A DNA stretch of 64,000 nt from Candidatus Enterenecus merdae (lineage in GTDB: Bacteria; Bacillota; Clostridia; Oscillospirales; Oscillospiraceae), in contig DVJZ01000026.1 of the NCBI GenBank assembly GCA_018716385.1, positions 1 to 64,000 of the forward strand. Reading direction: 5' to 3'. Made by a program: the position numbers and the translations under genes. Shown piece by piece: positions 302 through 14,429 of this stretch (positions are counted from its first letter, which is position 1; every line of letters starts with the position of its first letter). The notes under the pieces were generated by a model that searched no databases, had not been told where the DNA came from, and was given only the letters and a program-made list of their open reading frames with translations.

Positions 302-3079
302 TCAAGAATACTTCGCAATAATCCCATCCACATCCGCCACATTATAGGACACATCATTGCACCAAACGCCGTATTCTCCCAAACCGTTCACAGCAGAAAT
401 CCATTCGGCCAGTGCCTTTCGCTTCTCCTTATCTCTGCGGCTCTCCTGTCCCTTGGCCTCCAGAACCAGAGTTTTCCCGTTGTCCAGCTTGATCAGAAAG
501 TCCGGCGTGTATTTGCGGATGACTCCGTCAAAAACATAAAGAATCTCAAAGCCAAGGTGATCATTTTTTGCCCAGGCAACAACATGGGGATTTTTCTCCA
601 AACGATAGCTCTCTGTCGCCTCCCATGCGCTGTCAAAGACACAGTGACTGATTTGGGAATGCTGTGTAATATAGCAGGGCTTACTGGTAAACCAGGTGGG
701 CATATCGTTGGTAGAGCGAACTCTCTTGTTCTGGTCAAAAATCGGTACGATCTGCTCTGTCTGTTCCATTTTGATGAAACTCCACAGGTGCTGCACGATC
801 TTGTTCATGTTCATCATGTAGATGATACGCTGTCGGACCGGATCAGTATTGAATAAGGGCGGGTTAATGACGATTGCGCCAGACTTCAGATACTGCTCTA
901 CCAGCCGGATAACCTGCCCCAACAGGGCAAATTTAGTACCCTCATTCTGCCAAGAAGCCTTCATCAAATCATAAACCTGTCCGGATGCCTCAAACACGAT
1001 CCGCTGCATCCGCAGTTCCGCGTCCAGCTTTTCCAGGTCGATCTCTGTACACTTGGTCAGGTCGGTCTTGCCATCAATGATCGGGGCCAGGTCGGCCCGC
1101 AGACGGGTATCCGATGCCTCCAGCACCAGTGTGTCGATTTTGTCCAAATCAACTGAGAGCTTTGGCTTGAAGCCCCGGTCGATGCGAATAATGTTCGGCC
1201 AACTGATAGCATAGTCCATCCGCTCCTTCAGCGCCTCCACCTGGGTCTTGGGCGGTGTTGTGGGCGGAGTGCCAGTTTCATCCGACTCATGGGGCAGGAA
1301 TGTGAAGGGAATGCCAAAAATATTCACATACTCCGGCGTAAACATATCGCTGCCTTCCGCCAGATCATAGGAGGTCCGCCGCAGTCCACGGCCCACCACC
1401 TGCTCGCAGAGCAGTTGGCTGGAGAAAGCGCGCAGGCCCAAAATATGCGTCACGGTCTTGGCATCCCAGCCCTCGGAGAGCATTCCCACCGAAATTACAT
1501 TGCGGACCTGCTCGCCGCGCTTGCCCCGCTGTCCCACGGTGTCCACGGTCTCACGAAGAATGGCGGCGGCCTCTTTCTTGCTGAGTTTTCGTTCCCCGCT
1601 ATCATCGTCTTCGGCAGTCATATCCGGTGCGGCAGTTCCCTCTGCCTCGTCCATCGTCTTGGAATCAATATGGATGGTTAGCTCTGGCACGCACAATTCC
1701 GGGATAGGGATACGGCCATGGTCAAATGCGTATTTGATTCGGGCGGCAGTCTCCGTCCGGTTGGCAACCGTGATCATCACCGGCGGGACCGGCGAGCCGG
1801 CGTCCTGCCACGCATGGAACAGCACCTGCCAGTCCTTCCCCAGCAGATAGAAAGCCTGCATCAGCAGGTCAGGCAGAGGTTCCTCCGGCGGAGCGGGCCG
1901 GTTGATGTCGTCCTTCACTGTGTCGTCCGCATAAATATGATACAGCTTGGAGCGCAAGCTCTCAGCATCGGGGATACCATCATCCCGCACCACCACCCGG
2001 GGCGTTTTGACCAGGCCGGATTCAATGCCGTCATTTAATCCGAAGTCGCTGACGATCCAGCCAAACAGCGCCTCCTCATCATTTCGCTTGCCGGAGGGAG
2101 CAAAGGGAGTAGCCGAGAAATCGTAACAGGTCAAAATCGTGCGGGTCTTGTGGATGCGGTCCAGGCCGCTGATCCAGATGGTGGCCTGCTGTTCCGCCTC
2201 CTTCTGCTCCCGGGTCAGTTTCCCCTTGTTCTCCGGGTTTTTGCGCCATGCGTGGTGGGCCTCGTCGTTGATCACCAGGATATTCTGCGCGTTGGCCAGC
2301 TCCCCCAGCACTTCCCGGGTGTAGGCCTCGTCGCTCTTGGCTCCTCGCTTGTCCACACTCCTGCGCTTTCTGACGGCTTCCTCGCTCTCCCAAGCCAGTG
2401 CCTGCCAGTTGGTGATCAGCACCTTGCCCTGGCGCAGCCTGTCCATCAGCCCCACCGGTACCACATTGAACTGGGTGTAGTAGTTGTCCTCACCGCCGGT
2501 CTGGAGCACCTGAAGACGGCTCTTGACGGTCAGGCCGGGGGCTACGATAAACACATACTTGGAAAACCGCTTGTCCTGGGGATAGGTGGCCTTGTTGCAG
2601 ACCATCCAGGCAATGAGCATGGCCATCACCGTGGTCTTGCCGCCGCCGGTACACAGCTTGGTGCAGATACGGCGAAACAGGCCGCCGTCGCCGGGGATGT
2701 CGATGCCCACCTTGTCCGCATCCGGCGCCTCGGTGAGCCAGATAATGGTCTCAATGGCGTCCATCTGGCAGAAGAAAAACTGGTACTGCCGGGCGCCCTT
2801 ATCGTTCCAGTGTTCCAGCAGCTTCTTGGTCACGCCGGTGACGCCGGGATAGCCCGCCTGCCGCCAGGCTTTTACCCGGGGGCGGATCTTGTTGACCAGG
2901 GGCAGCTCGATGAACTGGCCGATGTCGTTGTACTGGTTGGAGCCCTGCCCGGCGATGAAGTAGCCGGCGGGCCGCCTGCCGGGTTCCCGGACAAAGGTCT
3001 GCCCGTTCAAGTCGTATTTCCAGTGACACTCCGGCTCCCGGAAGGCGGAGTTGATGATCAACTGGTCGATTCCTGCCAT
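302..3079 (-). CDS. res: Type III restriction enzyme, Res subunit (helicase-nuclease)
   Basis: A 925-residue protein with the layout of type III Res subunits. It has a superfamily 2 helicase core with Walker A TGGGKTT at about 144-150, DEAH box at 272-275 and SATP further on. Near the C-terminus (about 868-890) is a PD-(D/E)xK nuclease motif (TPDF then LVLEAKG). Res acts with Mod: it uses ATP to communicate between two inversely oriented unmethylated sites and cuts beside one. The start overlaps the mod stop (TAATG), so the two are translationally coupled. Length is normal and no damage is visible. Confidence 0.95.
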   Translation of the reverse strand: MAGIDQLIINSAFREPECHWKYDLNGQTFVREPGRRPAGYFIAGQGSNQYNDIGQFIELPLVNKIRPRVKAWRQAGYPGVTGVTKKLLEHWNDKGARQYQFFFCQMDAIETIIWLTEAPDADKVGIDIPGDGGLFRRICTKLCTGGGKTTVMAMLIAWMVCNKATYPQDKRFSKYVFIVAPGLTVKSRLQVLQTGGEDNYYTQFNVVPVGLMDRLRQGKVLITNWQALAWESEEAVRKRRSVDKRGAKSDEAYTREVLGELANAQNILVINDEAHHAWRKNPENKGKLTREQKEAEQQATIWISGLDRIHKTRTILTCYDFSATPFAPSGKRNDEEALFGWIVSDFGLNDGIESGLVKTPRVVVRDDGIPDAESLRSKLYHIYADDTVKDDINRPAPPEEPLPDLLMQAFYLLGKDWQVLFHAWQDAGSPVPPVMITVANRTETAARIKYAFDHGRIPIPELCVPELTIHIDSKTMDEAEGTAAPDMTAEDDDSGERKLSKKEAAAILRETVDTVGQRGKRGEQVRNVISVGMLSEGWDAKTVTHILGLRAFSSQLLCEQVVGRGLRRTSYDLAEGSDMFTPEYVNIFGIPFTFLPHESDETGTPPTTPPKTQVEALKERMDYAISWPNIIRIDRGFKPKLSVDLDKIDTLVLEASDTRLRADLAPIIDGKTDLTKCTEIDLEKLDAELRMQRIVFEASGQVYDLMKASWQNEGTKFALLGQVIRLVEQYLKSGAIVINPPLFNTDPVRQRIIYMMNMNKIVQHLWSFIKMEQTEQIVPIFDQNKRVRSTNDMPTWFTSKPCYITQHSQISHCVFDSAWEATESYRLEKNPHVVAWAKNDHLGFEILYVFDGVIRKYTPDFLIKLDNGKTLVLEAKGQESRRDKEKRKALAEWISAVNGLGEYGVWCNDVSYNVADVDGIIAKYS

Positions 3080-5601
3080 TATTCATCACCTACCTTGATT
3101 ACCTTCAGACTCTCGATGCCCCGGTCGTCAATGATCTTGACCGCGATTTGAGAGTTGGGCTGGACAGTAAACCAAATAGATTCATTCCCGGCGAATTTCT
3201 CAATCAGGTCCGGGTCGATCTCGGCCTTCAAGGTCTTGGCCAGCTTGTTCCAGCCGTCCTTCATGCCGCCCATGGGGAAGAATACCTGGGTGGGCTGGAG
3301 GCACATCCCGTCATAATCCGTGTCCAGCATCCACATGGCAATGCGGGAGGTGCTGCCGGATTCCACTGTGCCCTTCTTCACATCGTAGTAATCAAAACCG
3401 TTGACCCACACCTTGTAACGGGTCTTGCTGCGCTTGTCCGGGATCAGCTCCACATCCGGCTGTCCCACCAGCCAGAAGGACTGGTCGGAGGATCGTTTTT
3501 TCTTCAGATCCTCTGTCATCAGGTCAGTGTTCATCTGGGCTTTCAGGGCGGTGAGGCCCGGCCAGTTCAGCTCGTCGATGTCCTTGGCGGCCTCCGGGTC
3601 AAACTGGAAGGCAGCGAAGATGATCAGTTTGGGGGTGGGGCGCAGATTTTCCACCTCGTCCAGGGCCATAGATACCATACGGGAATCCATAGGCTTGGTC
3701 TCCCCGGCAAAGCAGATCACCGCCCGGCGGGGCGTATTCTCCTTGGTCTCCGCCTCCGCCTGGAGGAACTTGGTGCCGGCCAGGGGTTCCACCCGACTGA
3801 ACTCTAGGCGGCTGCCGCCCCGGCCCAGAATGCCGGTGGCCAGCAGCTGGTCCCGCCAGTCAGTCTGCTTGGCGGTGGAGTCCTCATCCCAATCACTTAC
3901 ATCATCCAAAGGCTTCACCACGGGAGCAGGCAGGGCCTCCACGGTGAAAGGGCCGGTGATGCGGATCTTGGTCTTGTCGATCTCCGGTTGGTCGTAGAGG
4001 GTTTCCGTTGCAGGCGGTTCGTTATTGGCAATGGAACCGAGTGTAATGTGTGGAACTGTTTTATAGATAAATCCGCTGCCCACGCCCTGCTCTGGATGGG
4101 CCAGCTTGTAGTAATCAAAGGTGGCGGTCATCAATCGCTGTTTGGCTAACGTTATTGCTATCCGGGAGGTGTCACAGGTGATCCAGCGGCGGCCCCACTG
4201 CTCGGCTACATAAGCGGTAGTGCCGCTACCGCAGGTGATGTCCAGAACCAAGTCGCCGGGGTCGGTGGTCATAAGCATACAGCGTTGGATAACCTTTTCC
4301 GATGTTTGAACTACATATTTTTTATCTGTTGCTCCTTGCGTATCATTCCAGATATTCGTCAAGGCCGTTACGGGAAAATCATCATAATATAAGACATATT
4401 CTGGACTATCCCCAAGTTTAATAAGTCGATTCTTTTTAATAAGTGTTTGAATTCCATTTTTGTTTGTTTTCCAGCTTCGGCCACGATGTGGGGAGCAAAT
4501 TTCACCATTAAATTCAAAATCGAATACGCAAGAATCTGTGCGACCAGATGAATGCATATCAAGTGTTCTAAATACACGAGTTCCTTTAGGCAAACATGAT
4601 GGATCTTCCTTTTCTTCTCGTGTCATTCTTCTTCTTTCGCCATTTGGAAATTCAACACAAGTATACTGACTTCCAAAGCCAATTTCTTTTTCTACAAATA
4701 GCTCATGAAACTTTGCCAATTTTTCATTTTTTGCATACCAAATAATATAATCATTTGTAGATGCAAGATATGTACGGCCCAAGGCCATCTTTTTCGTCTT
4801 AAAAGAAATCTGTGCTATATAATTTTGAAATCCAAATACTTCATCGCATAATATCCGAACTAAATGAACATTCGCTTCACTGATTTGAATAAACACGCTT
4901 CCCGTTTCTGACAATAATTCTCTTGCTAAAAGTAATCTGTTTCGTAAATAGCTAAGGTAGGAGTGTATTCCCAATTCCCAAGTGTCACGAAAAGCCTTTA
5001 TCATTTCTGGTTCTTGGGACAAATCGTCATCTCTGTCCTTTACCATGTTTTGATTTACAAAAGGCTGGAAATTGGAGCCGTACTTGATGCCGTAGGGCGG
5101 GTCAATGTACACCATCTGCACCTGCCCGGCCATGCCCTCTTTCTCCAGCAGGGAGTTCATGATCACCAGACTGTCCCCGGCGATCATGCGGTTGGTCCAG
5201 TCCACGCCGTGCTGATAGAACTCAATGGACTCCCGCCGCCGGCGCATCCGCTCCGCCGGAGTTTCCGCCGGGAACAGGTTGACCTGGCCCTCGATCTGGC
5301 CCGCCTCCGCCTCGGAGTATTCCTTGGTCACCCGGGCGATGATGTTCAGCGGCTTGATGGATTCGTGGATGTGGATGGAGGAGGTAGGCACCTGAAAGCT
5401 CATGCCCTCCGCCTTGCCCGCCCACTGGAGCGTGGGGTCCAGGTGAGGATCGAACTGGTAGGTCTTGAGCTTCTCCTCCGCCTTGTCGTGCTGGGCCATG
5501 CCCACCGGCGGATTGTTGGTGCGCTTCTTGTCATCGTGGGTGTAGGTCTCGATGTCGCGCATCTTCTCTGTGTCTGTCAGTTGTTTTCTCGGCCGCGCCA
5601 T
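3079..5601 (-). CDS. mod: Type III DNA adenine methyltransferase, Mod subunit
   Basis: An 840-residue beta-class N6-adenine methyltransferase: catalytic DPPYGIKYGSNF at 167-178 precedes the target recognition domain, and the AdoMet-binding DITCGSGTT follows at 454-462. Mod provides sequence recognition for both methylation and restriction. Base composition is a clear mosaic. The ends are GC-rich, but the middle (about 4280-5060, residues 180-440, covering the recognition domain) is markedly AT-rich, which suggests the specificity region was replaced by recombination. It starts right after the stop of the ATPase gene upstream and is followed by overlapping res. Confidence 0.95.
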   Translation of the reverse strand: MARPRKQLTDTEKMRDIETYTHDDKKRTNNPPVGMAQHDKAEEKLKTYQFDPHLDPTLQWAGKAEGMSFQVPTSSIHIHESIKPLNIIARVTKEYSEAEAGQIEGQVNLFPAETPAERMRRRRESIEFYQHGVDWTNRMIAGDSLVIMNSLLEKEGMAGQVQMVYIDPPYGIKYGSNFQPFVNQNMVKDRDDDLSQEPEMIKAFRDTWELGIHSYLSYLRNRLLLARELLSETGSVFIQISEANVHLVRILCDEVFGFQNYIAQISFKTKKMALGRTYLASTNDYIIWYAKNEKLAKFHELFVEKEIGFGSQYTCVEFPNGERRRMTREEKEDPSCLPKGTRVFRTLDMHSSGRTDSCVFDFEFNGEICSPHRGRSWKTNKNGIQTLIKKNRLIKLGDSPEYVLYYDDFPVTALTNIWNDTQGATDKKYVVQTSEKVIQRCMLMTTDPGDLVLDITCGSGTTAYVAEQWGRRWITCDTSRIAITLAKQRLMTATFDYYKLAHPEQGVGSGFIYKTVPHITLGSIANNEPPATETLYDQPEIDKTKIRITGPFTVEALPAPVVKPLDDVSDWDEDSTAKQTDWRDQLLATGILGRGGSRLEFSRVEPLAGTKFLQAEAETKENTPRRAVICFAGETKPMDSRMVSMALDEVENLRPTPKLIIFAAFQFDPEAAKDIDELNWPGLTALKAQMNTDLMTEDLKKKRSSDQSFWLVGQPDVELIPDKRSKTRYKVWVNGFDYYDVKKGTVESGSTSRIAMWMLDTDYDGMCLQPTQVFFPMGGMKDGWNKLAKTLKAEIDPDLIEKFAGNESIWFTVQPNSQIAVKIIDDRGIESLKVIKVGDE

Positions 5602-6652: not shown

Positions 6653-7375
6653 CTAAATCTCCCTTACATATTTTTTCAGCGCTTGATAGGTTCGCACATT
6701 GTTCGTCAGCACTTCCCGGCAAAGTTTACGGTGGGCCTCCTGCTTTTCTTCCTCCGTCCGCTCAGGGATGTCAAATTTGGCGAAAACCTCCTCCATGGGG
6801 ACATAGAATTTTCTCTGCTCTTCCTCCGGGAGTTTGCGGATCTCCTCTGCCTCGCGAGCGGCCTCATGGAGTTTCTGCCGCTCCGCCTCCACACGCTCTT
6901 CGTCGAACCCAAAGAAGGTCATTTCCCAAATAACAGCAGCGCACAGCTCAGTCGCTCCCACATCGTAGGCATTGCGCACATCGATTTCATAGCCAAGGAT
7001 CTCATTCCAGGGAGAGAATTCAAAGGCATAGGACTCCGGAAAATCTCGGAGATGCGCCAGCCGCTCAATTTCTTCCTCTGCCAGTTCCCCTATATCCTCC
7101 AGACCGGCAAGTTCGGAATCTGCTCTGCACCCAGCCTCCAACTCCTCTTTGCAGTACAGACAGGGATCCAGGAAATCCCCATCTTCATCCACATGGAAAA
7201 TGCCGAGGATCAAATGCCCGCAGTCAACCGGTTCGATCTGATTCAAGCCCTCAATGAATTTCACGAGGCGTTTCATGACCCGTTCTCTGTCATCCGGCTT
7301 GGCGTGGAACTTGTCCAGCAAGAGCGCGGCAATGGCCGCTGGTGGTTGACTGATGATCAATTCTTTTACATTCAT
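6653..7375 (-). CDS. Uncharacterised acidic protein downstream of DUF4143 ATPase
   Basis: About 240 residues from ATG 7375, which has a GGAGG site 8 bases upstream; an alternative ATG at 7396 overlaps the upstream stop (ATGA). The protein begins MNVKELIISQPPAAIAALLL and is rich in Glu, Lys and Arg. It has a cysteine cluster (CLYCKEE then GC) near residue 65 and a charged helical C-terminal part (EERVEAERQKLHEAAREAEE). I do not recognise a catalytic motif. Tight coupling to the ATPase suggests the two act together, possibly as an accessory or defence-type pair, but that is inference. Confidence 0.6.
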   Translation of the reverse strand: MNVKELIISQPPAAIAALLLDKFHAKPDDRERVMKRLVKFIEGLNQIEPVDCGHLILGIFHVDEDGDFLDPCLYCKEELEAGCRADSELAGLEDIGELAEEEIERLAHLRDFPESYAFEFSPWNEILGYEIDVRNAYDVGATELCAAVIWEMTFFGFDEERVEAERQKLHEAAREAEEIRKLPEEEQRKFYVPMEEVFAKFDIPERTEEEKQEAHRKLCREVLTNNVRTYQALKKYVREI

Positions 7376-7392
7376 AATGGCAACCTCCGCGC

Positions 7393-8670
7393 TCATGGTT
7401 TCAATGCCGTCACCGGCACCACAAACACCCCGTCCGGTCTCTGATACGCCGCGTTGGCCATCCCACACAGGACGCACAGCACCGCTGGCGGCTTGCCCTT
7501 GGGGTCCGCCTCGATCTGCTTTTTGATCTCCAGCAGGTTCTCCGCCGCGGCGTCGATCTGGTTGGCCCCCAGTTTGATCTCAAAGGCACACCACTGGCCG
7601 TCGGGCAACTCGATCACCGCGTCGATCTCCTGATTTCTGTAGTCCTGATAGTGATAGAGGTGCGCACCGAAGGACTCAGCGTAGATACGCAGGTCCCGCT
7701 CGCACAGGGCCTCAAAGAGAAAGCCCAGGGTCTCCAAATCCCCCAGCAGTCCGGCAGGCGTGGCCTTCAGCAGGGCGCAGGCCAGAGAGGGGTCGGCAAA
7801 GTGCCGCTTCTCCGCCTGCTTCACTCGCACAGAGGAGCGGATACCAGAGGAGAAGGGCGGCTGGTTGTCCGTAATAAACAGCCGCTTGAAGATGTCCAGA
7901 TAGGCCGCCACGGTGTTGCCGTCGATGTCCTCGTCGTCCACCGCCTTGATGTCCTTCATCAGCGTCTTGTTGGTGACGGTGGTGCTCTCGTTCCGGGCCA
8001 GGGAGCGCAGCAGCAGGCGCATTTTCTGAGTGTCCCGCTTGATCCCGTCAATACGGTATACATCATCGTCGATGACAGCGTCCAAGTATTGAGCCGGGAG
8101 CAGCGCCGCCTGCTCCAGCGGCAGCCCCAGGCTCCCTGGCCAGCCGCCCCGGATAATCAGTTCGATCAGTTTCTTCAGATCCACCTCGCCGGTCATGGCG
8201 GGGGTCAACTTCCCTTGGCACAGCTGCTCCAGTGACACCTTGCCGCTGGAGTCCCCGGACTCCCACAGGGACATGGGCCGCATTCGCAGTCGGGCGATGC
8301 GGCCCGCGCCGCTGTGGAGGATGCCCTTGTGGTTGGGCGTGGCAGAGCCGGTGAGGATGAACTGCCCCTTCTGGGCCGTCTGATCTACCTTGTAGCGCAC
8401 CGCGTCCCAGAGGGGCGGCACCTCCTGCCACTCGTCGATGAGGCGGGGCGTCTCCCCCTCCAGCACCAGGGCGGGGGACAGTTCCGCCAACTGGCGGTTC
8501 TGGAAGTTGCCGGCAGGATCGCCGATATAGATCTCGCTTTTGCTGTGGTAGGAGGAGGTCCAGGTCTTGCCGCACCATTTCGGTCCCTCGATGCAGACGG
8601 CGCCAAAAGCGGACAGGTACTCCTCCACCTGCCGGTCAATGATACGGGGCTTGTAGTTCTGCTTATCCAT
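7393..8670 (-). CDS. AAA ATPase with DUF4143 C-terminal domain
   Basis: 425 residues of the AAA_14/DUF4143 family. Walker A is GPKWCGKT at 29-36 and Walker B is LIDEWQ near 77-82. The C-terminal half carries a nuclease-like DUF4143 region (NQEIDAVIEL ... CAFEIKLG), whose D...ExK arrangement resembles PD-(D/E)xK folds. The biochemical role of this large family is not settled; members are frequent in accessory regions. The start at ATG 8670 has a GAGGTGA site 7 bases upstream and a promoter further up. The next gene overlaps or closely follows it. Confidence 0.85.
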   Translation of the reverse strand: MDKQNYKPRIIDRQVEEYLSAFGAVCIEGPKWCGKTWTSSYHSKSEIYIGDPAGNFQNRQLAELSPALVLEGETPRLIDEWQEVPPLWDAVRYKVDQTAQKGQFILTGSATPNHKGILHSGAGRIARLRMRPMSLWESGDSSGKVSLEQLCQGKLTPAMTGEVDLKKLIELIIRGGWPGSLGLPLEQAALLPAQYLDAVIDDDVYRIDGIKRDTQKMRLLLRSLARNESTTVTNKTLMKDIKAVDDEDIDGNTVAAYLDIFKRLFITDNQPPFSSGIRSSVRVKQAEKRHFADPSLACALLKATPAGLLGDLETLGFLFEALCERDLRIYAESFGAHLYHYQDYRNQEIDAVIELPDGQWCAFEIKLGANQIDAAAENLLEIKKQIEADPKGKPPAVLCVLCGMANAAYQRPDGVFVVPVTALKP

Positions 8671-8700
8671 AAACGCTCACCTCGACTATAAGCTATGTCT

Positions 8701-8729
8701 ATCATAGCCCGTTCAGTTGAATTTTACAA
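8701..8729 (-). promoter_or_regulatory. Promoter for the DUF4143 ATPase pair
   Basis: On the minus strand TTGTAA (8729-8724) and TATGAT (8706-8701) are separated by 17 bases, upstream of the ATPase start at 8670. Confidence 0.5.
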
Positions 8730-9197
8730 CTCTATTCAGTCAATTTTTTGTTTTTATCCAGTGCAATTTTAGCCAAGGGTGAATTAGGAATCAAAACGAA
8801 TTTTCTTCGTTCTGATTTTTATGTCGAAATTTCAAAGCCTCGGTGCTCGCCTATCTGCCCCAGGATCAGAACGTCAATTTGTCGTTTTGATTTTCCGCAC
8901 CTATCTAGTGGTGACCGAATATTCTTCGCTCACCTACGGTGCTGGCCGACAAATTATCAGCCAGCTAATAAAAAGCCGCACAAAAGACGTAATATAGACT
9001 CATTTAAGCTCTTCACCAATCGGAAGACGCATAAAAGAGGCTATACAGGCGTGTTAAAAATTCCGTGCTATTGTCGTACGGCTAAATCCAATCATTGATT
9101 TACTAATTTCACACCCTACCTTACAACGTTGGCGAAAATTTTTCTTCCACGTTCTATGTTTATAGAAGAGACACCAGCCGGCCCGCTTTTTCGTAAC

Positions 9198-9226
9198 AAC
9201 GTGACAGGCAATCTGCCTGCCACGTT
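9198..9226. repeat. Hairpin with ACGTT ends
   Basis: AACGTGACAGGCA and TGCCTGCCACGTT form a 13-base inverted repeat with one mismatch around a 3-base loop. It sits amid the ACGT-rich motifs of the non-coding stretch. There is no T-run, so it is not an obvious terminator. Confidence 0.5.
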
Positions 9227-9605
9227 ATCGGTCGGAACTCATTAGCGCGATGACGCAACCGATAAATTGTCGGCCACATTGCAGGCAGCGACTGCTCCTC
9301 TTTCATATCAACGTGGGCAAATATTCTTCGCTCACGTTGTGTTTTCGACAAGATACACCCCTTGACAACCACAATATATTGTGGTAAAAGAAATATATAA
9401 TTGATTCTTTGTGCGCTCTCCGTGAAAATCGGAGCCAGGTGGTTGACCTGGGATCGGCAGGCAGCCGCATTGCACACGTTGTCAGGTTTGTACGCAGGTG
9501 TCTATGGCACTCTGACCCGCTAAGGGTGGAGTCTGCCCGGACGCCATTTTCATTTTAAGTTATCAGGCCGTTTGTGGCTGGGAAAGAATCTCACGCACTC
9601 ATTGA

Positions 9606-9664
9606 GGGCGCGAAAAGTTTGAGGATCACCATAAGGTGGTCGCTTTGCTTTTCGCGCCCTTTTT
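9606..9664 (+). terminator. Intrinsic terminator-like hairpin
   Basis: GGGCGCGAAAAG (9606-9617) pairs with CTTTTCGCGCCC (9648-9659), encloses a second small stem, and is followed by TTTTT. No plus-strand protein gene precedes it, so it may end a non-coding transcript. Confidence 0.55.
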
Positions 9665-10352
9665 GCGTCTATCGCACCAATGAACCACCTCCGCTCTTTG
9701 AGAGCAGCCGCACATCTCTGCCGGATGTGCGGTCGTAGAGGAAACCATCAGATGACATACAACATATCAGTATATCAGTCCCTCTCGTCTTTTGAGGTTT
9801 TGCGGGAGAGAAGAAGGATAAACCTCACCGGGGTCATGGCAGAGACTCCACCCCTCCCTGCTCCGGCGTTGTGCCGGTTCGGCAGCATGGAGGCTGCACA
9901 CTCCTGATTCCAGCCGAAGGGATCACACGACACACGCGGGCCATGGCGTTTGCCATCGCCCGCAGCCGAGTTCAGCGGCCGTGTCGGCAGTTGTCGTCGA
10001 AACAAGTTCCGTATCGTTCGTTTCCACATGAATGCGAAAACTCACTCACTTCACTGTTCTTCCTCTCCAAATCGAACCCGCTGCGCCGGGCTTCGATTTG
10101 GTTTGGAACCGACGACAGGGACCATCCCCATACTGCATCCGTACTGACCTGGCTTAAAATTGAAGAGAGACAGACGTTCGCCGGCAGATCGCTCTATGCA
10201 CCAAAGCGCCTCTGTTCCAAAGGATTTCGGCTTCTTCAAGCCGTTGCTCCCCTGGAGATTTCTCTGGAAATCCGGCGGAAACAGACGGACTTGCCAAGGG
10301 GTGGACTGCGCCTACCTGAACGACCTATGATAAAAAGGAGAGCTTTTCATAT

Positions 10353-11273
10353 ATGGCAAAATCAATCCAAAACTTAGGCCTCTACCTGACTCTGGTGGGC
10401 CAACTGGACAAGTTGGCCCGTCACAACCGCCAGGGTAGTTTCCGCACCAAGGAACGCTACTACGAGGCGTTCAAGCGGTTCTGCGCGTTCCTGGCGGACG
10501 AGTATCATCTGCAAAAACTGGAGAACATCAGCGGCAAGCACCTGGCCAGCTATGTCCTTTGGATGCAGGAGAGCGGCAAGTCCGCCTCCACCATCAAGAC
10601 CGACCTGGCGGCCATCCGGTTCTTCCACGACAAGATGAGCCGGCCCAAGTATCAGCTGCCCACCAATGACGAGCTGGCCGTGGAACTGGAGCGGCGCTGT
10701 TTTGGCGGCGTGGACCGCACCTGGAGCAACATCGAGTTCAACAAGATGCTGGGCAAGGCACTGGCCGAGGACCGCTATGACTTCATCCTGGCCCTCTATC
10801 TGGGCCGATACGCCGGTCTGCGTATCCATGAGTGCTTTCGCATCGACACCGCCACGGCGGAGCGGGCGCTCCGGGAGAATGCCATCACTATCAAGGGCAA
10901 GGGTGGCAAGGTACGGACGGTGCCCATCAACGAGCAGATCGCCGTCGCCATGAGGAAACAGCTGGATCGCACGCCCCGGGGCCATAAGCTGCTGGTACCC
11001 GACGATATGCACACCGACCGGGCCATCAACCTGCTGCAGCTCTTCATCATGAAACACCGGGACGAGGTGCGGGACGCGGGCTCCGACCGGCCTTTGACCT
11101 TCCACGGGCTTCGCCATACCTATGCAGCGGAGAAGTACAAGGAGTTGACCGGCAGCGGCATGAGCGCCCTGGACGCCCATTTCGCCGTGTCCCGGCTGTT
11201 GGGCCACGAGCGGGCGGATGTGACCAACATCTATCTGGCCTCTCTGCCCAAGGGAGAGCGCCATGGGAAATAA
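10353..11273 (+). CDS. int: Tyrosine-type site-specific integrase
   Basis: 306 residues with an N-terminal SAM-like core-binding domain (about 10-100) and a C-terminal catalytic domain. The active-site set is visible: R157 (GLRIHE), K183 (KGKGGK), H251 and R254 (HGLRH), H285 (LLGHE) and Y294 (NIYLAS). It cuts and rejoins DNA through a covalent tyrosine link. The start ATG follows an AAGGAG site. It overlaps the next small gene and heads an operon ending in a serine recombinase, an unusual combination. It could act in a different excision step from the serine enzyme. Confidence 0.93.
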   Translation: MAKSIQNLGLYLTLVGQLDKLARHNRQGSFRTKERYYEAFKRFCAFLADEYHLQKLENISGKHLASYVLWMQESGKSASTIKTDLAAIRFFHDKMSRPKYQLPTNDELAVELERRCFGGVDRTWSNIEFNKMLGKALAEDRYDFILALYLGRYAGLRIHECFRIDTATAERALRENAITIKGKGGKVRTVPINEQIAVAMRKQLDRTPRGHKLLVPDDMHTDRAINLLQLFIMKHRDEVRDAGSDRPLTFHGLRHTYAAEKYKELTGSGMSALDAHFAVSRLLGHERADVTNIYLASLPKGERHGK

Positions 11274-11478
11274 CGGAATGAATCCCAAAAGTCCGGGCCA
11301 AACTACACCCGGAGGCGAATGTATGGAACAGCAAGAGATCACATTGGGTCAGGCCACCTATCAGGTCAGCCGGGTCTACGCTGGAACCCGCCCCGCTTCG
11401 GAACTGGTGGCGGAGCGGCTGGCCAAGCAGATTTCGGAAAATCCTCCCTTTGACGAAGGGCACACCAAGGTCGTATAA
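11263..11478 (+). CDS. TnpW-like small transposon protein
   Basis: 71 residues from ATG 11263, which overlaps the integrase end; ATG 11323 (51 residues) has an equally good GGAGG site and may be the true start. The segment EITLGQATYQVSRVYAGTR followed by SELVAERLAKQI resembles the small TnpW proteins that lie beside serine recombinases in Tn4451-like elements. Its function is unproven; its placement suggests a directionality or accessory factor for the recombinase. Confidence 0.55.
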   Translation: MGNNGMNPKSPGQTTPGGECMEQQEITLGQATYQVSRVYAGTRPASELVAERLAKQISENPPFDEGHTKVV

Positions 11479-11514
11479 TGGCCTTGTGGGTCGGTTCGTC
11501 GTAAGGAGGCGAGG

Positions 11515-13227
11515 ATGAGAACCGACAAATTGACGCTGGGGTTCGCCTATCTGCGGCTGTCCAACGAGGAGGCCCAGGGCGGCGAGTCCTCCAGTATCAC
11601 CAATCAGCGCATGATCGTGCAGAACTACTGCAAACAGAACGGCATCACCCTGGTGCGGGAGTTCGTGGACGACGGCTACTCCGGCGGCAACTTCGACCGG
11701 CCGGCGTTCCAGGAGATGATGCGCCAGCTCTCCCAGGGCAAGGCCAACACCGTCATCACCAAGGACCTCTCCCGGCTGGGCCGCGATATGCGGGAGTCCA
11801 GCTACTACGCCGAGCAGTTCTTCCCGGAGCACGACATCCACTATATCGCCATCGGAGACAACTTCGACACCGAGCGGGAGAACATCATGGCCCCCTTCCT
11901 GTTTGCCATGAATGAGGTCTACCTGCGGGACGGCTCCCGGAAGGTGAAAGATGTACTCCGCAGCAAGCGGCAGAACGGCCAGTACTGCGCCTGCCCGCCC
12001 TACGGCTACCGCAAGGACCGGGAGGACAAGCACCGTCTGGCTCCCGACGAGCAGACTGCCCCGGTGGTACAGCGCATCTTCGAGCGGGCGGCCAAGGGGG
12101 ATTCCTCCCGGAAGATCGCCCTGGATCTGAACGCCGACGGGGTTATCCCACCGCTGAAGTACCGGGTGCTGTACCGGGACGACTTCAGCCAGGAGGGCGC
12201 CGCCCGGGCCAGCGATGTGTGGAACTACACTACGGTGAAGCGGATTCTGAAAAACCCGGTCTATCTGGGCCACACCCTGCTGGGCAAAAGCAAAAAGGTC
12301 AGCGTGAAGTCCAAGAAAAAAGTCCCGGTCCCCCGGGACGACTGGGCGGTGACGGAGAACACCCACCCGCCCCTGGTCACGAAGCAGCTCTATGAGCGGG
12401 CCCAGCAGAATCTGGGACGGGGCAGCCGGGACTACCGGGCCTACGACCAGGTGCGCAAGAGCATTTTCTCCGGCGTCGCCGTCTGTGCCAAGTGCGGCTA
12501 CTCTCTGTGCTCCTGCGGCACGGTCTATAAGGGAGAGCGGGAGAAGTACTGGTATCTCTCCTGCACCCACCAGCGGCAGGACATTGCCGAGCCCTGCACC
12601 GGGGTCCGGGTGCGGTACGCCGACCTGCTGGAGGTGGTGCGGCAGGATCTGAACCACCTGCTGTCCATGACGGACGATCAGATGGAGCGGATGGTGAAAG
12701 AAGCCCTCAAGCGCTTTGGCAGCGAGGAAGTCCTCAAGGCGAAGAAGCTCCAGCGGGAGCAGGCGGAGGCCCGGCTGCTGACCATCGACAAGATGGTGGG
12801 CAAGCTCTATCTGGACAACGCCGAGGGGCGCCTGGACGACGACCGGCTCCGGCGGATGATGGCCGACTTGGAGAAGGAGTCCGCCGGGCTGAAGGCGACG
12901 TTGACCGAGCTGAGTGTGGCCAGCCCTGCCCATGAGGTAGAGGAAAACTACCGCCGCTTTTTTGCCTTGGCCAGGGAGTACACCCAGATCCCTGAAGTGA
13001 ACCGGGATATTCTGCTGACCTTTGTGGAGAAGATCGAGGTGGGCCCCAAGGAATATCCCGACGGCACCGTGAAGGCCACCCACCGCAACCAGCCCTACCG
13101 GCAAAGCATCCGCATCTTTTACAAGTTCATCGGAGAAATGCAGGAGGACGCAATTCGGGCTCTGCCCGTGGATGTCTCCATCTTAAAACAGAGCAAAAAT
13201 TTGGACGATGAGCCAAATTCGGCATGA
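11515..13227 (+). CDS. Large serine recombinase (TnpX/TndX type)
   Basis: 570 residues. The N-terminal resolvase domain has the nucleophile Ser16 (AYLRLSNEE) and the conserved LSRLGRD. A recombinase domain and a zinc-ribbon (CAKCGYSLCSCG with a later Cys) follow, then a coiled-coil and a DUF4368-like C-terminal part. Such enzymes excise and insert elements through a circular intermediate with a 2-base crossover. The start follows AAGGAGG at 11503-11509. The gene ends about 70 bases before the junction with the interrupted spore gene, the usual position for the element's own recombinase. Confidence 0.93.
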   Translation: MRTDKLTLGFAYLRLSNEEAQGGESSSITNQRMIVQNYCKQNGITLVREFVDDGYSGGNFDRPAFQEMMRQLSQGKANTVITKDLSRLGRDMRESSYYAEQFFPEHDIHYIAIGDNFDTERENIMAPFLFAMNEVYLRDGSRKVKDVLRSKRQNGQYCACPPYGYRKDREDKHRLAPDEQTAPVVQRIFERAAKGDSSRKIALDLNADGVIPPLKYRVLYRDDFSQEGAARASDVWNYTTVKRILKNPVYLGHTLLGKSKKVSVKSKKKVPVPRDDWAVTENTHPPLVTKQLYERAQQNLGRGSRDYRAYDQVRKSIFSGVAVCAKCGYSLCSCGTVYKGEREKYWYLSCTHQRQDIAEPCTGVRVRYADLLEVVRQDLNHLLSMTDDQMERMVKEALKRFGSEEVLKAKKLQREQAEARLLTIDKMVGKLYLDNAEGRLDDDRLRRMMADLEKESAGLKATLTELSVASPAHEVEENYRRFFALAREYTQIPEVNRDILLTFVEKIEVGPKEYPDGTVKATHRNQPYRQSIRIFYKFIGEMQEDAIRALPVDVSILKQSKNLDDEPNSA

Positions 13228-13284
13228 CGGTTTTGTCGAACAGTGACAAGGAATTTGGCCTCAAACCCCTTTGAGATGGAGAAG

Positions 13285-13300
13285 GAACACCAAGGGAGGT
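13285..13300. other. Probable right end (att junction) of the island
   Basis: Left of about 13294 the frame of the spore gene runs into a TGA (13272-13274) and matches no SASP. From GAG at 13296 it reads perfect SASP sequence. The change point CAAGGGAGG contains the GA dinucleotide typical of TnpX-type crossover sites. The exact crossover base needs the left end of the element, which is outside the window. Confidence 0.55.
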
Positions 13301-13415
13301 TGGGGTCAACCTGAAGCAGGGCTACAACGGCGATCTGACCAGCCGTCAGGCCGGCTCCGTGGGCGGCCAGATGGTCAAGAAGATGATCGAGGCCTACGAG
13401 AACGGCCTGAAGTAA
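13296..13415 (+). pseudogene. 3' part of an alpha/beta-type small acid-soluble spore protein gene
   Basis: The frame reads EVGVNLKQGYNGDLTSRQAG, then SVGGQMVKKMIEAYENGLK, then TAA. This is the DNA-binding C-terminal portion of alpha/beta-type SASPs, which coat and protect spore DNA and carry the GPR protease site near this position. The N-terminal part and start are missing because the recombinase island lies directly upstream. The remaining codons are undamaged and the gene keeps its terminator, so the interruption looks recent or reversible. The 5' part should lie beyond the left window edge. Confidence 0.85.
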
Positions 13416-13438
13416 CCAGTTCAAACAGCCAATCCACA

Positions 13439-13477
13439 CAGGAGGCTCCGGGACTGCCCAACAGGGCGGCCCCGGAG
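13439..13477 (+). terminator. Terminator of the spore protein gene
   Basis: AGGAGGCTCCGGG pairs with CCCGGAGCCTCCCT across a short loop and is followed by TGTTTT, 24 bases after the SASP stop. Confidence 0.75.
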
Positions 13478-13709
13478 CCTCCCTGTTTTCCCAAGAAGGC
13501 CGGGCGCTTCCTCGCCGCAGGCGGGCAGCCATTCAGCGGAGAACGAGGGCAGTCAGCGCGCCACGCTCTCCACAAAGCACATCAGAATGGCCGCCAACTG
13601 TACCCTCTTCCGTATAGCGCATCCCCTGAAAAAGCCAACTGTTTTTCTCGCCCTTCCCCACCGCCGGCAAGGCTGTCCCGCTCAGGGAGAACCCGGCGGG
13701 GACTGCCGC

Positions 13710-14429
13710 CTATCCCCCCCGGTCTGACCGGTCCGGGTCACACAGCCGTGCCAGCTTCTCCCGGTCCCGCAGCTCCACTGTCCCTCGGGCCAGCCGCACC
13801 ATGCCCTCGCTTTGGAAGTAACGCAGCATCCGGGTAATCACCTCCCGGGCGGTGCCCAGGTGGTTGGCAATGCGCTCGTGAGTGATGTGCAGAATGGGGC
13901 TGCCCTCCAGTGCGCTCTCCCCCAGCAGAAAAGCGGCCAGCCGCTGGTCCATACTGCCCCAGAGGATTTGCTCCATCAGCCACATGACCTCTGAGAACCG
14001 GGTGACCATCACCTCGCTGGTGTAGTTTGCCAAGGGGGCGGATCGCTGGGTGACCTGCTGGTAGACCGGAGCAGGGATGACCCAGAACAGGGTGTCCTTC
14101 TCGGCCTGGATCATCAGATCAAACTGCAAGTTTTTGATAACACACGCGGCGGAAAACAGGCAGATATCCCCGGAAAACAGCCGGTAAAGCGTCACTTCCC
14201 GCCCCTGTTCGGACAGGATGAAAGCCCGCAGCTGCCCCTGGCGGATGGCCAGCAGGCCCAGGCAGTCCGCCTCCCCGCTGTGCACCAGCTCCCCCGGCTT
14301 GGCTGACCGCAGCACCGCGGCGGAGGCCAGCTGCTGCCGGTCCTGGATGCTCAGCCTCTCCCAAACAGGCAGGCACTGGGCCAGCTCCAGCCGCTCCAGA
14401 GCGGTATTTTTGTCCCCCATCCCGCTCAT
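13710..14429 (-). CDS. Crp/Fnr-family transcriptional regulator
   Basis: 239 residues: an N-terminal cyclic-nucleotide-binding-type beta-roll (about 20-130), a dimerisation helix, and a C-terminal winged helix with recognition helix ERIANHLGTAREVITRMLRYF. No Fnr-type N-terminal cysteine cluster is visible. It overlaps the DUF3842 gene (ATGA) in a two-gene operon divergent from larEBC. In Lactobacillus plantarum the lar operon is controlled by LarR, also a Crp/Fnr member, so control of the lar genes is a reasonable inference. An alternative in-frame start is ATG 14420. Confidence 0.85.
   Translation of the reverse strand: MSGMGDKNTALERLELAQCLPVWERLSIQDRQQLASAAVLRSAKPGELVHSGEADCLGLLAIRQGQLRAFILSEQGREVTLYRLFSGDICLFSAACVIKNLQFDLMIQAEKDTLFWVIPAPVYQQVTQRSAPLANYTSEVMVTRFSEVMWLMEQILWGSMDQRLAAFLLGESALEGSPILHITHERIANHLGTAREVITRMLRYFQSEGMVRLARGTVELRDREKLARLCDPDRSDRGG

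What the first reader, a model, noticed from the sequence alone, without database searches (positions are those of the whole stretch)
11515..13477. A recombinase-carrying island interrupts a spore SASP gene, possibly reversibly
Directly after the serine recombinase gene the DNA becomes the undamaged C-terminal half of an alpha/beta-type SASP gene with its stop and terminator. Large serine recombinases are known to split sporulation genes and excise during development (skin in sigK, the SP-beta prophage in spsM of Bacillus). An element that restores a SASP gene when it leaves would be a new example linking spore DNA protection to element excision. The lack of decay in the 3' half favours reversibility.
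Basis: partly seen in the sequence, partly recalled or inferred. Interest (0 to 1): 0.85.

Follow-up and report, generated by a model that had tools for sequence, protein, structure and literature searches.

The report
Mobile islands splitting a spore gene
In many gut bacteria the gene for the protein that coats and protects spore DNA is cut in two by a removable DNA island that carries its own cutting-and-joining enzyme, and the two halves stay fit to be rejoined, which suggests that the gene is put back together when a spore has to be made.

Summary
Window 11515-13227 is a large serine recombinase; 68 bp further on begins an undamaged 3' half of an alpha/beta SASP gene (13296-13415), the only SASP sequence found in this genome. 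Of 77 related recombinase loci (Clostridia, mostly Oscillospirales by title), 71 abut a SASP half (63 the 3' half, 8 the 5' half). In 34 of 34 genomes examined the halves rejoin in frame across two shared bases (GA; CA at both ends in one genome whose codon is CAG). The element arms form an attP-like inverted repeat. In four Agathobaculum species sharing the same cargo both halves stay constrained. Recombinases are open in 61 of 62 split loci and broken in both loci with an adjoining intact SASP. A named strain carries a 96%-identical recombinase in other DNA while its SASP is whole. Best reading: an integrative element whose dedicated attB lies inside the SASP gene; excision restores the gene. 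Not shown: excision, its timing, and this genome's own 5' half (not found in the assembly). Sporulation-gene elements whose timing I read about act in the mother cell; SASP is a forespore gene, so this would be germ-line rearrangement. In six Agathobaculum species sigG also appears cut beside a serine recombinase.

The parts
13296..13415 (+). 3' half of the alpha/beta SASP gene (core GA at 13296-13297, stop TAA 13413-13415)
   Evidence: PF00269 match, sole SASP hit in the genome; 98% identical to intact SASP locus of G003
13270..13321 (+). attR: element arm TTTGAGATGG...CACCAAGG, core GA 13296-13297, then SASP
   Evidence: arm conserved in other elements; the same end in Flavonifractor An306 is joined to other DNA directly after GA
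11515..13227 (+). large serine recombinase (integrase), 570 aa
   Evidence: Pfam domains; of 77 related loci 63 precede a SASP 3' half and 8 face a 5' half
11263..11478 (+). 71-aa ORF conserved upstream of the recombinase; candidate accessory or directionality factor (inference)
   Evidence: relatives in 6 other genomes among the loci scanned; no Pfam or NCBIfam match
10353..11273 (+). tyrosine recombinase, 306 aa, in this element and some relatives
   Evidence: Pfam Phage_integrase; relatives in G002 and G053, in G067 by its translated ORF and within the 87% nucleotide match
7393..8670 (-). cargo: AAA_14/DUF4143 ATPase
   Evidence: Pfam; 91% nucleotide identity with the complete G067 element
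6653..7477 (-). cargo: DUF6557 protein
   Evidence: Pfam
3079..5601 (-). cargo: DNA methylase, type III restriction-modification-like
   Evidence: Pfam N6_N4_Mtase; PHROGs DNA methyltransferase
302..3079 (-). cargo: ResIII-type restriction subunit
   Evidence: Pfam ResIII
13438..13486 (+). stem-loop behind the SASP stop, probable terminator of the SASP gene
   Evidence: fold -42.9 kcal/mol, z -7.9; not listed by the consensus scan

Best explanation
This is the right end of an integrative element that uses a large serine recombinase and a GA core inside the conserved codons A-A-N/S/A-E-V-G-V of the (usually single) alpha/beta SASP gene as its dedicated attB. Insertion leaves promoter plus about 28 codons at the left end and about 40 codons plus terminator at the right end. 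Precise excision would rejoin them in frame. Shown by comparison: the site, the shared bases, the in-frame rejoining in silico, the recombinase's near-exclusive link to SASP, mobility, and constraint on both halves while split. Inferred: excision happens in cells that go on to make spores, aided by an unidentified directionality factor; because SASP is needed in the forespore, the circle must be carried along and reinserted after germination (insertion being the default reaction of serine integrases), or only cells that lose it make good spores.
For: Only SASP of the genome, only its 3' half, beside the recombinase. 71 of 77 recombinase loci abut a SASP half. 34 of 34 rejoin in frame; the two bases are the same at both ends in 34 of 34 and are CA at both ends in G070, whose codon is CAG. 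attP arms match at 18.4 of 27 positions on average against 7.2 shuffled (33 pairs). In Flavonifractor An306 a 96%-identical recombinase (93% nucleotide identity over window 10458-13297) sits in other DNA after the same CACCAAGGGA, and SASP is whole. Agathobaculum G072/G079/G085/G120 share the cargo with interior dS close to flank dS, while the SASP halves show for example 10 of 44 synonymous but 1 of 160 nonsynonymous changes. Recombinase open in 61 of 62 split loci, 0 of 2 beside an intact SASP. OB.20 has a whole gene made of a second copy of promoter plus 5' half behind a truncated recombinase. A promoter-like block is conserved in 5 intact and 7 split genomes. gpr is kept in 8 of 9 split genomes of the genus.
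Against: No excised junction or circle was seen directly. The 5' half of this genome was not found. No forespore-type promoter motif is enriched before the recombinase (1 of 58, shuffled mean 2.4; the motif also missed the SASP controls, 0 of 12). In the Agathobaculum clade recombinase dS exceeds that of the flanks in 5 of 6 pairs, so that gene may be exchanged. In G049 the DNA close inside the left arm is chromosomal (parE), so some loci are rearranged. Many relatives have a whole SASP. Spore formation by these species was not tested.
Confidence: 0.72

Rival explanations
1. Plain insertional knock-out: the SASP codons happen to be a good attB, the elements come and go, and the split gene is simply dead while the element sits there. 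The lack of decay reflects recent insertion.
For: Within both genera examined closely many species keep a whole SASP (24 of 42 in the window's genus, 13 of 25 in Agathobaculum); cargo varies between elements; An306 shows mobility.
Against: Four species share split and cargo, with interior dS of about 0.15-1.0 like the flanks, yet the halves stay constrained; recombinase open in 61 of 62 split loci and broken in both loci next to a whole SASP; gpr kept; OB.20 regained a whole gene.
Confidence: 0.2
2. In this particular genome the gene is a dead relic: the 5' half has been lost (for instance when the CRISPR-Cas locus came in), so nothing can be restored here even if relatives can.
For: No 5' half or left arm in a 98.97% complete assembly; the upstream flank ends at a CRISPR-Cas locus.
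Against: C14 ends inside a repeat array and C11 inside the island, so the missing piece may lie in the gap; 9 of 50 other genomes also show only the 3' half; the own 3' half and recombinase are undamaged.
Confidence: 0.3
3. Selfish bet-hedging: excision is rare and random, and only the few cells that have lost the element form fully resistant spores, so selection on SASP acts through them without developmental control.
For: Would also give constraint on both halves, intact recombinases and mixed populations (a G049 contig ends exactly at the crossover and overlaps the element contig by 55 bp); no developmental promoter found.
Against: Would tend to cure lineages of the element, yet the split appears inherited in the shared-cargo clade.
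Confidence: 0.3

Closest known systems
skin elements in sigK (Bacillus, Clostridioides)
   Same: A sporulation gene is split by an element with a serine recombinase; halves rejoin in frame on excision.
   Different: sigK is a mother-cell gene and the rearranged chromosome is discarded (PMC4191935 passages); SASP acts in the forespore. The SASP-linked recombinase has no relative above 33% identity in the IMG/VR scan (7 loci, pattern-based).
SP-beta prophage in spsM (B. subtilis)
   Same: Site-specific serine recombinase; SP-beta YokA is among the four PDB sequences matched (9dxh, E 1.1e-16).
   Different: SP-beta is an active phage and excises during sporulation only in the mother cell.
gin in gerE (B. 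cereus), yin in yabG (C. botulinum), vfbin in spoVFB, vrin in spoVR
   Same: gin is a non-phage element with serine recombinases in a very small sporulation gene (PMC5595907 abstract and passages); yin exists integrated and as a circle (PMC10747680 passages).
   Different: gerE is a mother-cell regulator; spoVFB and spoVR are mother-cell-expressed; that yabG is too is recalled. yin is described as unique to one strain, whereas the SASP link holds in 71 loci of many genera.
Tn4451/TnpX-type mobilisable transposons
   Same: TnpX is the best PDB match (2mhc, E 1.4e-27); a GA core is also recalled for Tn4451.
   Different: TnpX elements are recalled to use many targets; this family is nearly confined to one codon position of one gene.

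Membership tests
Large serine recombinase / serine integrase | Resolvase N-terminal domain plus Recombinase and zinc-ribbon domains in a protein of over 400 aa | tested here: met
   570 aa; PF00239, PF07508, PF13408, PF14287 above cut-off
Large serine recombinase / serine integrase | 2-bp crossover core with attP arms forming an inverted repeat | tested here: met
   The two bases at the fixed codon position are the same at both ends in 34 of 34; 31 of 33 arm pairs match at 15 or more of 27. In some Agathobaculum ends the shared stretch is longer than 2 bp, so the exact core is ambiguous there; An306 supports GA. For the window itself only attR was seen
Alpha/beta-type SASP | PF00269 domain complete after rejoining | tested here: inconclusive
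   Own: 3' half only. In other genomes 34 of 34 rejoin in frame (33 with ATG and at least 59 aa)
Sporulation gene-intervening element (skin, SP-beta/spsM, gin, yin class) | Element with recombinase splits a sporulation gene, halves in frame across the core | tested here: met
   for the window's own genome the 5' half was not found
Sporulation gene-intervening element (skin, SP-beta/spsM, gin, yin class) | Excised circle and rejoined gene in sporulating cells | not testable with these tools
   No reads or cultures; only a contig end at the crossover in G049
Sporulation gene-intervening element (skin, SP-beta/spsM, gin, yin class) | Recombinase or directionality factor under a sporulation sigma factor | tested here: inconclusive
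   1 of 58 upstream regions with a recalled sigma-F/G-like motif, shuffled mean 2.4; positive control missed (0 of 12)
Sporulation gene-intervening element (skin, SP-beta/spsM, gin, yin class) | Rearrangement confined to the mother cell | not testable with these tools
   Would have to fail if SASP is used in the forespore as in B. subtilis (inference)
Prophage | Close relatives of the recombinase in viral collections | tested here: not met
   IMG/VR: 7 loci at 24-33% identity. Phage records: of the 8 of 40 listed, seven at 31-33% and MT836041 at 51%, which itself holds a SASP 5' half
Prophage | Phage structural genes in the element | tested here: inconclusive
   PHROGs on 5 window and 5 G067 cargo proteins: helicase, methyltransferase, endonuclease or unknown families, plus one 85-residue match of the restriction subunit to a head-closure family (E 1.6e-8); not all ORFs were tested

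The most novel reading that the evidence does not exclude
Germ-line DNA rearrangement in bacteria: spore-forming gut Clostridia keep forespore genes (the usually sole SASP gene, and in Agathobaculum also sigG, the sigma factor that in B. subtilis drives SASP genes) cut into two or three pieces in the growing cell. Serine recombinases rejoin them in the cell line that becomes the spore, and the elements reinsert after germination, so that insertion and excision alternate every spore cycle.
Probability: 0.33. Interest if true: 0.96.

Novelty: new variant of a known kind. Interest (0 to 1): 0.88.

Why it matters
The sporulation-gene elements whose timing is given in the passages I read act on mother-cell genes, and the accepted logic is that the discarded mother cell makes the rearrangement safe for the element. 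A widespread recombinase family devoted to the forespore's DNA-protection gene breaks that logic and makes a question testable: whether bacteria can rearrange DNA in the cell that founds the next generation and reverse it. It might also explain differences in spore resistance among gut commensals, and it supplies a set of serine integrases with a known conserved target.

Tried and rejected
Own 5' half: sought with the SASP profile, a 37-aa 5' peptide, the G003 upstream DNA, a degenerate KFKMEA pattern and the left arm of the closest complete element: none found. A phage origin is not supported by the viral collections, though only part of the hit lists was shown (8 of 40 phage records, 8 of 44 plasmid records at 32-34%). 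An attP pattern in viral contigs gave 0 hits. Sigma-F/G-like motifs before the recombinase: not enriched, and the motif missed the SASP controls, so the test is weak. A motif taken from the SASP promoters of the window's genus hit 22 SASP and 12 other places in 3.05 Mb, and a looser form was in 32 of 88 SASP 5' regions, so it is a feature of that genus and near kin rather than of every host. Rfam: nothing in 9000-14000. A second whole SASP copy as proof of excision: in G053 and G066 the two SASPs differ in sequence, so they are paralogues or contamination, not two states of one gene. G052 has a whole SASP plus a remnant piece on one contig, which I could not explain fully. Recombinase-host co-descent was checked only by pairwise dS in one clade, not by a tree. 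The classification of the 77 loci is by text patterns in 1 kb downstream; two of the 63 (L157, L158, apparent duplicates) hold an atypical middle piece.

Literature searched: (listings and starts of abstracts), and passages of PMC5595907, PMC10747680 and PMC4191935; none of what I saw reports an element in a SASP gene or in sigG. The library holds only open-licence PMC papers, so this is no proof of absence.

Full report
WHAT IS IN THE WINDOW. The window is the first 64 kb of contig C11 of a 1.8-Mb, 98.97% complete assembly. ORF 11515-13227 is a 570-aa large serine recombinase (Resolvase, Recombinase, zinc ribbon, DUF4368). After its stop come 68 bases of element arm and then, from the bases GA at 13296-13297, the last 39 codons and stop of an alpha/beta SASP gene. 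No start codon lies in frame between the preceding stop and the half. It is the only SASP sequence found in the genome (E<=1). A strong stem-loop follows. Window 13296-13491 is 98% identical to the SASP locus of the relative G003, and gene order then agrees to about 44 kb. In G003 the SASP gene is whole and its upstream neighbours follow directly. So this is an insertion into the gene. Island genes in the window include restriction-modification (ResIII, N6_N4_Mtase), DUF6557, AAA/DUF4143, a tyrosine recombinase, a 71-aa ORF and the serine recombinase.

THE OTHER END IN THIS GENOME. The upstream flank lies on contig C14, but only to 340 bp before the place of the SASP start; beyond it lies a CRISPR-Cas locus (type I-C by gene order, named by eye) whose repeat array is the contig end. 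The SASP 5' half and the left arm were not found. Either they lie in the gap between two contig ends, or they are lost. The complete element closest in type among those fetched is in G067 (uncultured Flavonifractor): 23.5 kb between the halves, 87-91% nucleotide identity with window 7382-8747 and 9850-13418.

RELATIVES SPLIT THE SAME WAY. In the window's genus (42 genomes including this one) 24 have a whole SASP match, 3 a match ending at positions 49-52, 9 only halves cut at the same codon (junctions read), and 6 none; two of the 24 also carry split pieces. Most whole-copy genomes show one SASP match. Searching named genomes with an alignment of nine SASP-linked recombinases gave 77 loci. By text patterns in the 1 kb after the recombinase, 63 have a SASP 3' half, 8 an antisense SASP 5' half, 2 an intact SASP, 2 another sequence, and 2 end at a contig edge. 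Record titles include Flavonifractor, Flintibacter, Agathobaculum, Dysosmobacter and Ruminococcus; identity goes down to 47%. Genomes of 50 of the 77 loci were searched for SASP: 33 have both halves and no whole copy, 9 only the 3' half, 1 only the 5' half, 3 a whole copy (one of them with a 3' half as well), and 4 other combinations. The halves lie on one contig in the right order in at least 14 genomes, 4.1 to 36 kb apart.

THE JUNCTION. Of 42 genomes in which both halves were found (one of them, G053, also with a different whole copy) I examined 34; for 8 the 5' half was not fetched. Joining them at the bases shared by both ends gives an in-frame SASP in 34 of 34 (33 with an ATG and at least 59 aa; G081 probably starts at GTG). 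Seven of these end in the second-site tail described below. The two shared bases, read at the fixed codon position, are GA in 33 and CA at both ends in G070, whose SASP has Gln (CAG) in place of Glu. In some Agathobaculum ends the shared stretch is longer, so the exact core is ambiguous there. The two element arms put together match as an inverted repeat at 18.4 of 27 positions on average, against 7.2 for shuffled arms (33 pairs). This is what a serine integrase attP looks like. In Flavonifractor sp. An306 a 96%-identical recombinase (93% nucleotide identity over window 10458-13297) ends in the same CACCAAGGGA but is joined to other DNA, a 287-codon open frame that looks like an AMP-ligase (by eye), and its SASP gene, on another contig, is whole: independent support for the core and for mobility. 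One further locus, L115, also has other DNA after the arm.

IS THE SPLIT GENE STILL IN USE? (1) Agathobaculum G072, G079, G085 and G120 carry the same mgl-gal sugar operon between the halves, with the same flanks as intact species. Interior and flanking genes show comparable synonymous divergence (for example ptsI 0.28-0.70, galK 0.43-0.85, mglA 0.15-0.73), so this split was most likely inherited. Over the six pairs the 5' half has 0 nonsynonymous differences in 412 site-pairs against 9 of 110 synonymous, the 3' half 7 of 544 against 29 of 158. Single pairs range from Fisher p 8e-7 (G072-G085: 1 of 160 against 10 of 44) to 0.07 (G072-G120); pairs are not independent. Against this, recombinase dS is higher than that of the flanks in five of six pairs, so that gene may have been exchanged. 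(2) The recombinase is an open frame of at least 520 aa in 61 of 62 split loci not cut by a contig edge (9 were; the exception, L131, has one stop that is probably its natural end) and in 0 of 2 loci next to an intact SASP (Fisher p 0.0015). (3) In Colidextribacter sp. OB.20 promoter plus 5' half exist twice (224 bp, 99.1%): once followed by the left arm, once behind a truncated recombinase and joined in frame to the 3' half. The gene was apparently regained another way where the recombinase is broken. (4) A promoter-like block (GCATA, 17 bases, CAAACTATGC) is conserved in 5 intact and 7 split genomes of the genus, GGATA replacing GCATA in one; it resembles the recalled sigma-G consensus, but is not found in most other hosts. 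(5) The SASP-specific protease gene gpr is present in 39 of 42 genomes of the genus, including 8 of its 9 split ones. (6) In assembly G049 one contig ends exactly at the crossover and overlaps the element contig by 55 bp, as expected where an assembly graph branches; this fits a mixed population but may equally be two strains.

HOW IT MOST LIKELY WORKS. Serine integrases insert without help and excise only with a directionality factor (PMC3783163, abstract start). The window element would therefore be inserted by default and released when such a factor is made; the conserved 71-aa ORF is one candidate (inference). In sigK and spsM the rearrangement happens in the mother cell, which dies, so the element stays in the spore (PMC4191935 passages). 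SASPs coat DNA inside the forespore (established for Bacillus, recalled). Rejoining must then take place in, or before, the cell that becomes the spore, and the element can persist only by reinserting after germination or by living in cells that do not sporulate. I hold the reversible-element reading likely and the developmental-cycle reading possible but unproven.

A SECOND SITE AND A SECOND GENE. Many SASPs are also cut near codon 50 (GGQMVK), where the reading frame runs into a tail with a recurring P-x-R...RTA-x-GH pattern. In G017 the gene is in three pieces, and the last piece lies beside another serine recombinase (22% identical). In six Agathobaculum species and in Clostridiaceae bacterium 9 (7 of the 27 genomes with a match, 28 searched), sigG matches start only at position 86-92, each 8-26 bp behind a recombinase ORF (Pfam-checked in G080). 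The 5' third was not in the DNA fetched from those genomes, but in another Agathobaculum genome, G121, sigG runs from its start to codon 93 next to a sigE-like gene and then leaves the frame of sigG, without a recombinase in the fetched DNA. In G079 and G120 the C-terminus is cut too, with the last piece 9-23 kb on, in G079 beside a second serine recombinase. No genome of the 28 reached the NCBIfam cut-off for sigG (best 434.7 of 457 bits), so the name rests on similarity. The sigG 3' part is constrained (for example 5 of 325 nonsynonymous against 46 of 95 synonymous, G079-G085).

VERDICT. Observation confirmed; interruption certain; a dedicated, mobile, reversible-type element well supported by comparison; rejoining during sporulation inferred; own 5' half unresolved. 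Closest known: sporulation gene-intervening elements. New: forespore target, a recombinase family devoted to it across many genera, and recurrent multiple cutting of forespore genes.

Noticed in passing
L229, L227, L232, L233, L236, L237-L238, L239 (Agathobaculum G080, G073, G072, G079, G085, G120; Clostridiaceae bacterium 9); L187 5291-5578 (G121): sigG lacks its first about 90 codons and is directly preceded by a serine recombinase ORF; in G079 and G120 its C-terminus is cut as well, the last piece 9-23 kb away. In G121 only the first 93 codons were seen, cut at the same place.
   Followed up: partly
G017 C5 (L036, L063); also L059-L061, L086, L087, L091: A second insertion site near SASP codon 50; in-frame tail with pattern PxR...RTAxGH; in G017 SASP is in three pieces with a second, distant serine recombinase.
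   Followed up: partly
L045 1-8723; L031; L057-L058: CRISPR-Cas loci (type I-C by gene order, by eye) lie beside the SASP locus in three genomes, in different orientations.
   Followed up: no
L169-L174, L181-L182: An mgl-gal sugar utilisation operon (named by eye) is the cargo between SASP halves in four Agathobaculum species.
   Followed up: partly
L052 (G049 C20): parE (named by eye) lies about 360 bp inside the left arm; the SASP halves of this genome seem separated by a chromosomal rearrangement rather than a simple island.
   Followed up: partly
L250 (MT836041.1): A record filed as Bacteriophage sp. carries a SASP 5' half next to a 51%-identical recombinase and a reverse-transcriptase-like ORF (by eye); probably chromosomal.
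   Followed up: partly
L057-L058 (G052): A whole SASP and a SASP middle piece with a recombinase remnant lie on one contig with a large CRISPR array between them.
   Followed up: no
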